A stretch of DNA of 64,000 nt from Bacteroidota bacterium (GCA_947449315.1 CANFRC010000010.1:1-64000), one strand, 5' to 3'. Numbered from the stretch's first letter, positions 38,861 to 43,390 are shown. A program made the numbers and translations. Notes: generated by a model from the sequence alone, not told the origin.

Positions 38861-38868
38861 TATATTTG
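38861..38868 (+). promoter_or_regulatory. Promoter -7 box of the SMC-like operon
   Basis: TATATTTG (TAnnTTTG) lies 28 bases before the ATG of the SMC-like gene, predicting a leader of about 20 bases. No clear -33 element is visible. The remaining 200 bases back to mtaB show nothing else recognisable. Confidence 0.5.
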
Positions 38869-38896: not shown

Positions 38897-41590
38897 ATGC
38901 TTACTAGAATCTCTTTAATCAATTCGAAAGGTTACGGCAAGGCCGAAATGAAACTTGACAATTGTGATTCCATTCAATTAGTTGGTCCTAATAATATTGG
39001 AAAATCAACATTGATCTATGCCTTGAATTTCCTATTTGTAGTAGACGGGCAAAAAATGTCGTTCAGTGGTCAGCGAAAGGGTGATAAAGAAACAATCCAT
39101 CACTACTTCCCTACACACAACAAGAGCTTTCTAATATTCGAGATAAACAAAATGGGATACTATTGTATTCTTGTTAAACGCAATACCGACGGGGAACTCG
39201 AATATTATAAAATTGATAGCGAATACAATGAGGAGTATTTCTTTGAAAATGAAGGGGCGCATCAACGATTAAGAAATTTTGATGAAGTGCTTGCATTACT
39301 ATTAGCTAAAGGAGTTGTCCATTCTAAATTTACTACTAAGTCAGATGTTTTTAACCATGTATATCACCGTGGAACTAAAAACAATGCAGTTGTTTGGTTG
39401 GAAGATACAGTAAAAGCTGATGGGTTAAGCAACAACTTCTCAAAAGTATACCGTTACTTAATCAACTCGAAATTGATTACGAACAAAACATTAAAAGAAT
39501 CATTGATTATTGCTGATAACCGTGAAAATGAAAGTTTGAACTTTTCTCAGAAAAACAAAAAAGACATTATTGATCTTTTGCGTATCAATGAAGAAATAAA
39601 AAGTATTAAATCTGTTCGTCCTGATTTCCTTGAATTCCGTGAATTAGTAAAAGTTTACAATTCTAAGACACAAATTGTAAGCGAGTTAATTTGTGCGTTC
39701 AACAATTCATACACTGCCGCTATTCCAGAGCTAGAAATCTCCTCTATTGAAAGAGGTCGTCACATTGCCGCTATTCATAACGAGATCAATGAAATATTAA
39801 AACCAAAAGAATTAAACTACGCATCTTACATTGGAGAAAAAAATGCAGAGATAAAAAACAAAACAAATCTTCATGCTGAAAAGCAAGGGGAATTAGATGA
39901 AGTGAATAAATTTGAAACTGTTGATTTCCTTAAAGAATCTTTACGCAATCTTGACAAGGACCGAAAAGACATCGAAACGCGATTCACCACCATAGAAAGT
40001 CAGAAACTTTCCTCTAAGCAATTAGAGATTCGTATTGATAAAGTAAACGGTCAAATTGCTTCACTAGAAAATCAAATTGACAACTACAATAATCTTTTAA
40101 TTCATAAGATCTCTGATGACGAAGGTGTTAAACAACTTCTGAATTCAGTACTTTCAGAACAAGTAACAAGCCTTTCCAGCAAACAGATCAAAAAACCGAT
40201 CAAAAAAATCTCCAACAAATTATTGGCAATTTTTGACGGCGAAATCGATATTACAAAAGGCATTGAATTAAAAGAATTCAGATCTATAAAAGAATTGAAA
40301 GACGAATTAAAAGTTCTTCAGTTAGAGAAAAAACAAACAGAAGACCTTTTAAAAACAGTTGTTGATAAAGAGAAAATAGATTCAAAATTAAAAGCCATTT
40401 TAAGTGAGATAGAGATCATTAAAGACAAAGTAAAACGTATTGAAAACAAACCCACACTTGAAAAACAAATTCGTTTTATTACTGATGATATCAAGAAAAT
40501 GACAGCTGACAAGAAGGAGCTGGAAGAATTATTAAATGACTTAGTAAAAGAAATTTCTTCAAAACAGATCATGTATGACAAGCTGCAGGAAGAAAAAAGA
40601 GGCCTGGAAGTACGTGTTAAAGAATTGAAAGAACGAAAACTGGAAGTAGAAGCTATCAATGTTCAACCTACAGAATACGAAACAAATGACAATCTGGATT
40701 ATATCTATTCGAAAATTCAGATACATCAAAAAGACAGAATTGAACTAAAAGCGAAAAAGGATGCGACGTTTGATAATTTAAAATATCGTTTACGAAACAG
40801 CAGTGCGGATGAAATCCAATTCATTCAATTTGTAGAAGAAGAAATTGCTTGCCTTTCTGATAAAGAACGTAGTATCGATGGCTTATTATCAAGTATCTCT
40901 ACTCAATTTGCTTATCCAGCATATACTTTATTGAAACGTTACGAAGAGTTCAAACAATTTGTATACAATAAGTTCAATGAGAAACTTTCTCAAACACGTA
41001 TCTCAAATATTGAATCAATGAAAATTGATCTGATTGATAATGAAAGAATCATTGGTGAATTAAAAAAGATTGCTTCCATTCAGGAATTCAACGGTCAAAT
41101 GAGTTTTGAATTCGACCAATCAGAAAACTTAAAAGTATTGAACACGTATCTGGATAGTGGTAAAAAAGTTGGTTTTGATGAATTATTCAATATCGAATTA
41201 TTACTTCACATTAAAGGAACAGACAAGCGAGTAGATCTTGCCAACCAAGTTGAATCAGATGGAACAGATCGTATGATCCGACTGGTGATGATCATGGCTA
41301 TTATTAACCGTTTGGCGATCACTGATGAACATAATAAGATTGCACTATTCATTGATGAGGTAGCCACAATCGATAAACAAAATCGACCGGAGTTAGTAAA
41401 ATTCTGTAAGGATCACAATTTCATTCCAATTTTTGCGGCACCTGATGCAGTGGAAGGATTCAACAAATACTATTTCATTTACCCGTCAAAAGGAAAGATC
41501 AATATAAGTGAAAAACAAAATGCTGTTATTGTTGAACGCAATGGTATTGTAGAAAAGATAACAAAGAAGAATTTAAAAAATTTGAACTAA
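38897..41590 (+). CDS. Short SMC-like ATPase (MksB/JetC-type condensin subunit)
   Basis: The 897-aa protein has Walker A GPNNIGKST at 30-38, two long coiled-coil stretches (about 270-405 and 465-650) and a non-coil insert between them that could be a hinge (about 405-460). The ABC signature region is VESDGTDRMIRLV near 785, with Walker B IALFIDEVATID near 818. The degenerate signature and adjacent kleisin- and MksE-like genes place it with MukB/MksB/JetC rather than canonical Smc or RecN. Such ATPases extrude DNA loops. The arms are much shorter than in MukB (about 1,490 aa). RecF/Rad50-like ATPase is a less likely alternative. Confidence 0.78.
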   Translation: MLTRISLINSKGYGKAEMKLDNCDSIQLVGPNNIGKSTLIYALNFLFVVDGQKMSFSGQRKGDKETIHHYFPTHNKSFLIFEINKMGYYCILVKRNTDGELEYYKIDSEYNEEYFFENEGAHQRLRNFDEVLALLLAKGVVHSKFTTKSDVFNHVYHRGTKNNAVVWLEDTVKADGLSNNFSKVYRYLINSKLITNKTLKESLIIADNRENESLNFSQKNKKDIIDLLRINEEIKSIKSVRPDFLEFRELVKVYNSKTQIVSELICAFNNSYTAAIPELEISSIERGRHIAAIHNEINEILKPKELNYASYIGEKNAEIKNKTNLHAEKQGELDEVNKFETVDFLKESLRNLDKDRKDIETRFTTIESQKLSSKQLEIRIDKVNGQIASLENQIDNYNNLLIHKISDDEGVKQLLNSVLSEQVTSLSSKQIKKPIKKISNKLLAIFDGEIDITKGIELKEFRSIKELKDELKVLQLEKKQTEDLLKTVVDKEKIDSKLKAILSEIEIIKDKVKRIENKPTLEKQIRFITDDIKKMTADKKELEELLNDLVKEISSKQIMYDKLQEEKRGLEVRVKELKERKLEVEAINVQPTEYETNDNLDYIYSKIQIHQKDRIELKAKKDATFDNLKYRLRNSSADEIQFIQFVEEEIACLSDKERSIDGLLSSISTQFAYPAYTLLKRYEEFKQFVYNKFNEKLSQTRISNIESMKIDLIDNERIIGELKKIASIQEFNGQMSFEFDQSENLKVLNTYLDSGKKVGFDELFNIELLLHIKGTDKRVDLANQVESDGTDRMIRLVMIMAIINRLAITDEHNKIALFIDEVATIDKQNRPELVKFCKDHNFIPIFAAPDAVEGFNKYYFIYPSKGKINISEKQNAVIVERNGIVEKITKKNLKNLN

Positions 41591-41603
41591 GCTACACATC
41601 GAA

Positions 41604-42797
41604 ATGAAGGCAGAACCAAAAACAATACTCCGCTTTTTATTGGAACACTATGATGTAATCGCTGAGTTATTCGAAACACAGTCAAAAGATGGCATTATAG
41701 CATTTGAGGTATTGAATTTAATTGTATCGAAACACGAAAGTGATATTCGTTCTCAATTAATTGAATACAAAATACTGAGTCCTGTAAACGATAATTACGA
41801 AATACGTACCGTCTATTACAATTTGATCGAATTCATTTTAAGTGAATTCAAACCGATGCTTCCTGAAACTATTGAAAAATACCATACTTCAATAGCCGAA
41901 TTGTTTCGCAAAATCAGGGAGAATATCAATGGCGACAAAGTTACATTAAGTCAACGTCTTAACGATTTAGCAATTGAAGTCCGCTCCTTTTATGAAATGG
42001 TGGAACGCAACACACAAAGTTTATTGCAGGAAACACGTGAATTAAAAGCCAATGTAAAAAAGATCGATTACCGCGAGAAAATTATAAAAGCCTCTCGTTG
42101 GATCGATGAGTATATTATCCCTTTGAATAAAATCTTGGATATTAATCATTCTACTTCCGTTGCAAATAAGTTATATGAGATCTCTGAATTCTCAAACAAA
42201 TACCGATTGAATTTTGATGATGAAAGCGCCCGCGTTCAGTTTGAAAAGCTTTATTTTCAATTAATCCAGGTAAATGACAATTTATTACGTCAATCAAAAA
42301 TATTGACCAATGAATTATTACCATTAATTGAACGTATCCGAACCGAATCAATTATTTTAACCGGATGGATCACATTCTTAAAAAACCCTTACAAGCGTAA
42401 AGTTCCTAAATTACTTAAACGCAAAGAAGTTTCAGTATACTCAGCAAGCACCTTCTTTAATGCTGCAGAAATATTTGAACAGTTTAAAAATGATACGGAC
42501 GTTTATTTTGAGGATGAAGAACATAATGACGAAAAATGGATCTTCGATAAAGAACATTACACTGCAAAATTAAAAGAGAATCTTCCAGTAGAAAATTTCT
42601 TTAAATGGTGTAACAAAACATTAAAAGAAGACTATAAAACAGTAGAAATAGAAAAATTCTTTGCTCTTACCACACTTGCTTTCGACGAAGACATTGAGCG
42701 CGACTTTGGTTTAAAAGCTGAATTTGATAAAATAAAAATTAACGACCTAACAATCACAGTTCCTAAAATAACAATCAACCAACATGGAATTTCCTAA
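41604..42797 (+). CDS. Kleisin-like subunit of the SMC operon (MksF/JetA-like)
   Basis: The 397-aa protein has an N-terminal region resembling a winged helix (about 1-75, ILRFLLEHYDVIAELFETQ). A long helical middle with coiled coil follows (ETIEKYHTSIAELFRKIREN... to RELKANVKKI), then a C-terminal helical part. This is the layout of MukF/MksF kleisins, which bridge the two SMC heads. I base the call on layout and on its place between an SMC ATPase and an MksE-like gene, because direct motifs are weak. It follows the ATPase by 13 bases and overlaps the next gene by 14 bases, so the subunits are probably made in fixed ratio. Confidence 0.65.
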   Translation: MKAEPKTILRFLLEHYDVIAELFETQSKDGIIAFEVLNLIVSKHESDIRSQLIEYKILSPVNDNYEIRTVYYNLIEFILSEFKPMLPETIEKYHTSIAELFRKIRENINGDKVTLSQRLNDLAIEVRSFYEMVERNTQSLLQETRELKANVKKIDYREKIIKASRWIDEYIIPLNKILDINHSTSVANKLYEISEFSNKYRLNFDDESARVQFEKLYFQLIQVNDNLLRQSKILTNELLPLIERIRTESIILTGWITFLKNPYKRKVPKLLKRKEVSVYSASTFFNAAEIFEQFKNDTDVYFEDEEHNDEKWIFDKEHYTAKLKENLPVENFFKWCNKTLKEDYKTVEIEKFFALTTLAFDEDIERDFGLKAEFDKIKINDLTITVPKITINQHGIS

Positions 42798-43311
42798 TCA
42801 CCACAGACACATTGTAGAAGATTTAATGAGTGGAAAATTTATTTTACCACAAGAAAGAACCTATCAGGTTCTAAAAGAAAACGAGCAATCCTATCTTTAT
42901 TTCTTCAAAGCTTCTTTTAATTACGACCTGAAGCTAACACAGGATTATGCATATATTGTTTCCGATGAATCCAATGAAATGCTTTCACGCGACATATGTA
43001 TTTTCATCTCTTTATTAAGCTATGAACTTGATAGAGATGGAAAAAATTTCTTGGAGCGTATTCAATTCAGTGAATTTGAAATGGAGGAAATTGAAAACTA
43101 CTTTACAAATTCTTCTTATATCGACCTAATCCTCTCCAACAAACAATTAAAGGATGCCGACTCTAGAAAAAATTTCATCAATACTTTAAATAGACGAAAC
43201 ATTATCGAAAAAACGTCAGACAATCGTTTTGTATTTACTTCAGCGCATAAGTTCTTTATGGATTTTGCAAGTGATATTGTAAAATTTGAAAACACTGAAA
43301 AAGAAGATTAA
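42784..43311 (+). CDS. MksE/JetB-like condensin accessory subunit
   Basis: The 175-aa protein looks like two winged-helix parts: HRHIVEDLMSGKFILPQERTYQVL at the front, YLYFFKASFNYDLKLTQDYAYIVSDE as the strand-bearing section, and a second unit ending NRRNIIEKTSDNRFVFTSAHKFFMDF. The beginning (LMSGKFI followed by a strand-rich region) is typical of MksE/MukE kite proteins that bind the kleisin and DNA. Its start overlaps the kleisin gene by 14 bases. A perfect terminator follows, so no fourth gene (JetD/MksG nuclease) belongs to the operon. Confidence 0.72.
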   Translation: MEFPNHHRHIVEDLMSGKFILPQERTYQVLKENEQSYLYFFKASFNYDLKLTQDYAYIVSDESNEMLSRDICIFISLLSYELDRDGKNFLERIQFSEFEMEEIENYFTNSSYIDLILSNKQLKDADSRKNFINTLNRRNIIEKTSDNRFVFTSAHKFFMDFASDIVKFENTEKED

Positions 43312-43365: not shown

Positions 43366-43390
43366 AAAGGGGCTAAACGCCCCTTTTTTT
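43366..43390 (+). terminator. Intrinsic terminator of the SMC-like operon
   Basis: AAAGGGGC (43366-43373) pairs with GCCCCTTT (43379-43386) around TAAAC, followed by T to 43390. It lies 55 bases after the MksE-like gene and is the most GC-rich hairpin in the window. Confidence 0.92.

What the first reader, a model, noticed from the sequence alone, without database searches (positions are those of the whole stretch)
38897..43311. Self-contained three-gene SMC condensin operon without a nuclease gene
Seen: a short SMC-type ATPase (897 aa; Walker A, degenerate signature, Walker B), a coiled-coil kleisin-like protein and an MksE-like kite protein in the order B-F-E, tightly coupled (13-base gap, 14-base overlap). 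A -7 box precedes them and a perfect terminator follows. Known: MukBEF, MksBEF and Wadjet (JetABCD) share these parts; Wadjet needs JetD/MksG to cut plasmids, and its usual order puts the SMC gene third. Inferred: with no JetD, this is either a Bacteroidota chromosome-organising Mks complex or a Wadjet-like system that blocks plasmids without its own nuclease. The short arms and this gene order deserve description.
Basis: partly seen in the sequence, partly recalled or inferred. Interest (0 to 1): 0.7.

Follow-up and report, generated by a model that had tools for sequence, protein, structure and literature searches.

The report
Nuclease-free MksBFE condensin of Bacteroidia
A bacterium of the phylum Bacteroidota that lacks the usual chromosome-folding machine (Smc-ScpAB) carries instead a relative of E. 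coli MukBEF whose cousins still hold a plasmid-cutting nuclease gene in the same operon, which suggests that a plasmid-defence machine was turned into the cell's chromosome organiser.

Summary
Three tightly coupled genes (897, 397, 175 aa) stand at the stated places: MksB (MukB-like head, VIA Z 24.9), MksF (MukF/JetA-like kleisin) and MksE (Pfam MksE, 5.7e-21). No nuclease gene is in the operon or elsewhere in this 99.8%-complete genome. Smc, ScpA and ScpB are missing too, so this is the only condensin recognised. In its genus it is near-universal (25 of 26 good genomes; ScpB in 0 of 36), chromosomal, among housekeeping genes, and conserved like them or better. Some more distant relatives carry a 263-279 aa TOPRIM 'mini-MksG/JetD' gene, always between mksB and mksF (B-G-F-E), scattered over the tree in a pattern best read as repeated loss. 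In 296 Bacteroidia genomes, none of 57 with a nuclease-free MksBEF has ScpB, against 75 of the other 239 (p = 1e-8); by family, against nuclease-bearing systems, p = 0.04. Best reading: a MukBEF-like loop extruder that organises the chromosome in place of Smc-ScpAB, derived from a Wadjet-like defence complex by losing its nuclease. Nuclease-free Mks complexes are known; the gene order, the internal nuclease slot and the exclusion of ScpB are new. Function is inferred, not tested.

The parts
38897..41590 (+). mksB: SMC/MukB-type ATPase, 897 aa, with short coiled-coil arms
   Evidence: ORF; AF2 model pLDDT 76.7; Foldseek best hits MukB 9gm9_A 1.1e-20 and 7nyw_B 2.1e-19, JetC 9qxx_A 4e-13; VIA Z 24.9 to the MukB head 3euj_A, 374 residues, 3.3 A, the first seven rows all MukB
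38984..39010 (+). Walker A of MksB, GPNNIGKST (residues 30-38)
   Evidence: sequence; N32, N33, G35, K36, S37 invariant in 31 homologues
39548..40081 (+). N-terminal coiled-coil arm of MksB (about residues 218-395)
   Evidence: long helices in the AF2 model
40082..40288 (+). probable small hinge of MksB (about residues 396-464); low-confidence region, hinge fold not shown
   Evidence: break between the two arms, pLDDT 37-57
40289..40990 (+). C-terminal coiled-coil arm of MksB (about residues 465-698)
   Evidence: long helices in the AF2 model
41255..41266 (+). degenerate ABC signature of MksB, S-D-G-T (residues 787-790)
   Evidence: S787, G789, T790 invariant
41354..41359 (+). Walker B Asp820-Glu821 of MksB
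   Evidence: both invariant in 31 homologues
41591..41603 (+). mksB-mksF junction (13 bases): the slot that holds a 263-279 aa TOPRIM nuclease gene in relatives L042, L043, L045, L051, L052, L053, L084, L098
   Evidence: comparison of operons
41604..42797 (+). mksF: kleisin, 397 aa, with N-terminal winged helix (residues 1-67), helical bundle and C-terminal winged helix (about 316-397)
   Evidence: AF2 model pLDDT 80; Foldseek best hits MukF 9gm7_C 8.2e-5, JetA 9qxt_E 1.4e-3, then 8dk2_A and MukF 3rpu_B; NCBIfam NF040857 7.1e-5 over residues 4-179, far below its cut-off
42784..43311 (+). mksE: KITE subunit, 175 aa, overlapping mksF by 14 bases
   Evidence: Pfam PF21980 MksE 5.7e-21, 76 bits, cut-off 27, matching nearly the whole profile
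43366..43386 (+). intrinsic terminator, 8-bp perfect stem followed by a T run
38861..38868 (+). TATATTTG, a possible Bacteroidota -7 box 28 bases before the mksB start; unproven
   Evidence: motif present but not enriched over chance in the window

Best explanation
The operon encodes a three-part SMC complex of the MukBEF/MksBEF (Wadjet) group that has no nuclease. Shown here: MksB has a MukB/JetC-type ATPase head and coiled-coil arms; MksF has the MukF/JetA kleisin layout; MksE is a KITE of the MksE family; the genome has no recognisable Smc, ScpA, ScpB or JetD. Inferred: two MksB joined at the hinge and bridged at the heads by MksF with MksE form an ATP-driven ring that loads on chromosomal DNA, extrudes loops, and organises and segregates the chromosome, the work Smc-ScpAB does in other Bacteroidia. 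Also inferred, from its nuclease-bearing B-G-F-E relatives: it descends from a Wadjet-like defence complex and became safe for chromosomal work by losing its small MksG/JetD nuclease, as has been proposed for P. aeruginosa MksBEF and for MukBEF.
For: Family and fold. No other condensin marker in the genome: ScpB, JetD_C, Smc TIGR02168, ScpA, with controls ringing in known genomes. Core gene in the genus: MksE in 31 of 36 genomes and 25 of 26 good ones, ScpB in 0 of 36. Fixed chromosomal place MtaB - mksBFE - Lgt - SuhB in the nearer relatives, housekeeping neighbours including MutL, no GC anomaly, no close relative on 72,556 plasmids or 50,697 phages. Protein identity to nine close relatives: MksB 84, MksF 89, MksE 90% against MtaB 85, Lgt 72, SuhB 75, AsnB 70%, the opposite of an arms-race gene. 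Class-wide: 57 genomes with a nuclease-free, P-loop-bearing MksBEF, 0 with ScpB; all others 75 of 239 (p = 1e-8); genomes whose only Mks systems bear a nuclease, 8 of 21 with ScpB (p = 9e-6); by family 0 of 14 against 5 of 15 (p = 0.04).
Against: No experiment. Genomes of one family are not independent, and the family-level test is only p = 0.04. About 140 of 296 Bacteroidia have neither ScpB nor MksE by these models, so some bacteria of this class appear to manage without either, or have forms too diverged to see. Two ScpB-free genomes (G249, G265) have a nuclease-bearing B-G-F-E as their only recognised MksE system, so a nuclease does not by itself rule out the sole-condensin role. The hinge is not modelled with confidence.
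Confidence: 0.73

Rival explanations
1. It is still a defence complex: MksBFE recognises small circular DNA by loop extrusion as Wadjet does, and blocks plasmids by compaction or sequestration, or with a nuclease recruited from elsewhere in the cell.
For: Shared ancestry with nuclease-bearing B-G-F-E operons. Defence complexes of this group use the same three subunits (PMC10586767).
Against: No JetD_C or mini-MksG match in the genome; near-universal and syntenic in the genus, whereas Wadjet is described as sporadic (PMC10586767); conserved at or above the level of its housekeeping neighbours; no defence genes among the ten nearest neighbours scanned; PADLOC Jet models do not match it, while they match all four proteins of a true Wadjet in the same class very strongly.
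Confidence: 0.13
2. The nuclease-free form is ancestral, and mini-MksG was gained several times in the mksB-mksF gap, so the operon is a primary condensin from which defence systems were made.
For: Nuclease-free tips are the majority (51 of 59) and equal-cost parsimony needs only 6 changes, some of them gains.
Against: The nuclease gene is always in the same slot and diverges in step with MksB (r = 0.92 over 21 pairs, which fall into two groups); equal-cost parsimony puts the nuclease at the root; sister lineages L042/L044 and L084/L035 differ in its presence.
Confidence: 0.2
3. It is an accessory condensin used only under some conditions, with bulk chromosome organisation done by nucleoid proteins or by an unknown machine.
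For: About 140 of 296 Bacteroidia show neither marker; Hi-C of Bacteroides caecimuris showed arm alignment although no known condensin homologue was found (PMC10197239).
Against: Near-universal presence and strong conservation in the genus.
Confidence: 0.2

Closest known systems
MukBEF of Escherichia coli (mukFEB)
   Same: MukB-type head (best structural match), MukF-type kleisin, MksE/MukE family KITE, no nuclease, host without Smc-ScpAB
   Different: 897-aa MksB against MukB chains of 1467 residues in the PDB, so much shorter arms; SMC gene first (B-F-E) and not last; about 10-14% identity in the structural alignments
MksBEF of Pseudomonas aeruginosa
   Same: Nuclease-free Mks complex; [quoted passage not shown]
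   Different: There it works beside SMC (PMC7485682 abstract); here Smc-ScpAB is absent from the genome
MksBEFG / Wadjet (JetABCD)
   Same: SMC, kleisin and KITE parts; relatives of the window operon carry a TOPRIM-type gene matching JetD_C
   Different: No nuclease in the window lineage; in relatives the nuclease is 263-279 aa (JetD 380-397 aa in the same class), lies between mksB and mksF, and only its C-terminal TOPRIM part matches JetD
Smc-ScpAB
   Same: Presumed job: chromosome organisation
   Different: Different family of ATPase, kleisin and KITE; absent from this genome, and ScpB absent from all 36 genomes of the genus

Membership tests
MukBEF/MksBEF group (nuclease-free Mks condensin) | SMC ATPase of MukB/MksB type with Walker A, signature and Walker B | tested here: met
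   Motifs invariant; VIA Z 24.9 to the MukB head; profile match to long MksB of F-E-B operons, E 6e-27 over 837 columns
MukBEF/MksBEF group (nuclease-free Mks condensin) | MukF/JetA-type kleisin with terminal winged-helix domains | tested here: met
   AF2 model and Foldseek: MukF 9gm7_C 8.2e-5, JetA 9qxt_E 1.4e-3; sequence profiles alone did not show it
MukBEF/MksBEF group (nuclease-free Mks condensin) | KITE subunit of MukE/MksE family | tested here: met
   PF21980 5.7e-21
MukBEF/MksBEF group (nuclease-free Mks condensin) | No MksG/JetD in the operon | tested here: met
MukBEF/MksBEF group (nuclease-free Mks condensin) | Organises or segregates the chromosome | not testable with these tools
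   Only genomic inference
Wadjet (JetABCD / MksBEFG) | JetD/MksG nuclease encoded with the SMC complex | tested here: not met
   No JetD_C at E <= 10 in the genome; no mini-MksG match at E <= 0.01
Wadjet (JetABCD / MksBEFG) | Proteins recognised by the Wadjet models of PADLOC | tested here: not met
   No Jet model hit for the three window proteins, while L088 hits all four
Wadjet (JetABCD / MksBEFG) | Restricts plasmids | not testable with these tools
   No experiment possible
Smc-ScpAB | Smc, ScpA and ScpB family members | tested here: not met
   TIGR02168, PF02616, PF04079: no match in the genome

The most novel reading that the evidence does not exclude
In much of the class Bacteroidia the main chromosome-folding machine is not Smc-ScpAB but a nuclease-free Mks complex, and in the B-(G)-F-E family this arose repeatedly by loss of a small TOPRIM nuclease gene from a plasmid-defence operon, an evolutionary turn from immunity to housekeeping that can be watched in sister lineages.
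Probability: 0.5. Interest if true: 0.75.

Novelty: new variant of a known kind. Interest (0 to 1): 0.55.

Why it matters
A published Hi-C study reported arm alignment in Bacteroides caecimuris with no known condensin homologue and concluded that Bacteroides rely on unidentified SMC complexes (PMC10197239). This operon is a concrete candidate for part of the same phylum, and the class-wide exclusion of ScpB makes the replacement idea testable. The nuclease slot between mksB and mksF, filled in some species and empty in their sisters, gives natural pairs in which to ask whether losing one nuclease is enough to turn a plasmid-defence loop extruder into a chromosome organiser. The large 2025 survey of the group first kept only operons with consecutive MksB, MksF and MksE hits, MksB above 890 aa, MksF of 400 aa or more, and MksG as a flanking gene (PMC7617805). 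By those first filters a 397-aa MksF, an 878-887 aa MksB or an internal nuclease would be missed.

Tried and rejected
Sequence searches of single proteins against the PDB gave nothing useful, nor did profile searches (coiled-coil noise for MksB), so structure was needed. Weak PADLOC hits to AriA and HEC-01A are shared P-loop or coiled-coil similarity and were set aside. Profile-profile comparison of MksF with JetA of the same class, or with MksF of F-E-B operons, was not significant by sequence; the kleisin claim rests on the predicted fold. Recombination between mksB and mksF in the window was suspected, because MksB is nearest to L014/L015 and MksF to the L002 group, but separate gene trees place the window beside the L002 group for B (support 0.71) and do not show it clearly; unequal rates suffice. 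IQ-TREE did not finish; FastTree was used. The insert in L019 (318 and 1149 aa secreted proteins) is unrelated to nucleases. The 2011 paper that named MksBEF is not in the library, so what it says of gene order in Bacteroidota was not checked.

Full report
WHAT IS THERE. They are followed by a perfect 8-bp hairpin with a T run. The -7-like TATATTTG is real but the motif is no commoner than chance in this window.

WHAT THE PROTEINS ARE. The 175-aa protein is a KITE of Pfam family MksE (5.7e-21, well over the cut-off). The 397-aa protein has almost no sequence match (NF040857 at 7e-5, below its cut-off), but an AlphaFold2 model from 33 relatives (pLDDT 80) has an N-terminal winged helix, a long helical bundle and a C-terminal winged helix. 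Foldseek ranks MukF first (8.2e-5), then two JetA chains and more MukF. Because helical bundles match widely, the weight lies in the specific ranking of MukF/JetA and in the operon context. The 897-aa protein (pLDDT 76.7) matches MukB first in Foldseek, with JetC also high. In VIA-align the first seven rows are all MukB, with Z 24.9 over 374 residues at 3.3 A, against 19.8 for the next family. ATPase residues are invariant in 31 homologues. The arms are about 178 and 234 residues; the region between them, presumably the hinge, is of low confidence.

THE GENOME. The assembly is 2.61 Mb and 99.8% complete. It has no ScpB, no ScpA, no Smc (TIGR02168), no JetD_C even at E 10 and no mini-MksG. The SMC_N hits over cut-off are a 390-aa and a 564-aa protein of RecF and RecN size and one frame of ABC-transporter size (my reading of size). 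MksBFE is therefore the only condensin recognised.

THE GENUS AND THE NEIGHBOURHOOD. MksE is found in 31 of 36 genomes of the genus and in 25 of the 26 good ones; ScpB in none of 36. In the nearer relatives the operon keeps its place between mtaB and lgt-suhB (families). GC content is ordinary, and no close relatives occur on plasmids or phages. Against nine close relatives, MksF and MksE (89 and 90%) are better conserved than every flanking protein tested (70-85%), and MksB (84%) equals the best of them. This is how a housekeeping machine looks, not a defence island.

A NUCLEASE SLOT IN RELATIVES. One scan fetched 54 relatives. Those down to about 51% identity mostly have the same three genes. 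But L042, L084 and L098 (50-53%) and L043, L045, L051, L052 and L053 (29-32%) carry a fourth gene of 263-279 aa between mksB and mksF. Its C-terminal half matches JetD_C (4e-6 in L084, over the cut-off) and DUF7281 (8e-5 in L045), and PADLOC JetD at 1.4e-6. A profile comparison with full-length JetD of the same class lines up the TOPRIM glutamate, the DxD...G motif and the terminal LEQE motif (E 2.4e-4). All are invariant or nearly so in the family. It lacks about 120 residues compared with JetD of the same class, so I call it mini-MksG. That it cuts DNA is inferred from these residues.

LOSS OR GAIN. On a tree of concatenated B, F and E, the nuclease-bearing tips are scattered: sister lineages L042/L044 and L084/L035 differ in having it. 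Equal-cost parsimony puts the nuclease at the root with 6 changes; a single gain needs 11 losses. Divergence of mini-MksG tracks that of MksB (r = 0.92). Always the same slot, in step with MksB: repeated loss is the simpler reading, but some regain by recombination is not excluded.

CLASS-WIDE TEST. In 296 Bacteroidia genomes, MksE is in 93, ScpB in 75 and JetD_C in 16. I read the operon around nearly every MksE hit and searched it for nucleases with four profiles. Genomes with a nuclease-free MksBEF that keeps its P-loop: 57, none with ScpB. Other genomes: 75 of 239 have ScpB (p = 1e-8). Genomes whose Mks systems all bear a nuclease: 8 of 21 have ScpB (p = 9e-6). By family the figures are 0 of 14 and 5 of 15 (p = 0.04), which is the fairer number as genomes of a family are not independent. 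The pattern covers both the short B-F-E type and the long F-E-B type.

WHAT IT MOST LIKELY DOES. The parts, the absence of a nuclease, the absence of Smc-ScpAB and the housekeeping signature point to a MukBEF-like loop extruder that organises the chromosome. Review literature already proposes that P. [quoted passage not shown] The present case adds a family in which presence and absence of the nuclease can be seen side by side, in hosts without Smc-ScpAB.

NOVELTY. A nuclease-free Mks complex is a known kind. The order B-F-E, the internal nuclease slot with a short nuclease, the short arms and the strict absence of ScpB were not found described in the papers I could search; the founding 2011 paper was not available. 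[quoted passage not shown]

LIMITS. No function was tested. Nearly all close relatives are metagenome-assembled. About 140 Bacteroidia genomes showed neither marker. In two ScpB-free genomes the only recognised MksE system bears the nuclease. The multimer could not be folded.

Noticed in passing
L096, L153, L175 (genomes G081, G186, G279; MksE at L153 6287-6823): ScpB-bearing genomes of one family, 7-9.5 Mb, carry an MksE next to a 990-1020 aa SMC-like protein without a Walker A lysine and a small 115-120 aa gene: a seemingly ATPase-dead Mks of unknown role.
   Followed up: partly
Class sample of 296 Bacteroidia: About 140 genomes have neither ScpB nor MksE by Pfam models; which condensin they use, if any, is not visible.
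   Followed up: no
L099:11911-12765 (+), L092:2336-3208 (-), L169-L174: F-E-B operons with a 284-302 aa gene after mksB that matches DUF7281 (5.6e-13 in L099); it carries E-N, DxD..G and QE motifs like JetD, so DUF7281 is probably a TOPRIM MksG-type nuclease domain.
   Followed up: partly
L085:4634-5578 (-), L086:10945-11907 (+), L093, L097, L132, L135: A further nuclease-like type of 305-321 aa after mksB in F-E-B operons, with only a weak JetD_C match (1.8e-4 in L086).
   Followed up: partly
L089-L092 (genome G195, MEPB01): One genome of the same genus carries four Mks systems: the nuclease-free B-F-E, a B-G-F-E, and two F-E-B-G types.
   Followed up: partly
L019:4495-8910 (+): Genes for a 318-aa and a 1149-aa secreted protein (both with a C-terminal sorting-like domain) have been inserted between mksB and mksF, splitting the operon.
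   Followed up: no
L052:11302-14604 (+): In a distant genome the B-G-F-E operon is followed by MtaB, Lgt and SuhB, the same genes that flank the window operon.
   Followed up: no
window 38897-42797: Window MksB is nearest to L014/L015 (89-90%) but MksF to the L002 group (89-90%); gene trees do not clearly show recombination.
   Followed up: yes
L009:190-2804 (+): mksB appears split into two frames (520 and 351 aa), by frameshift or assembly error.
   Followed up: no
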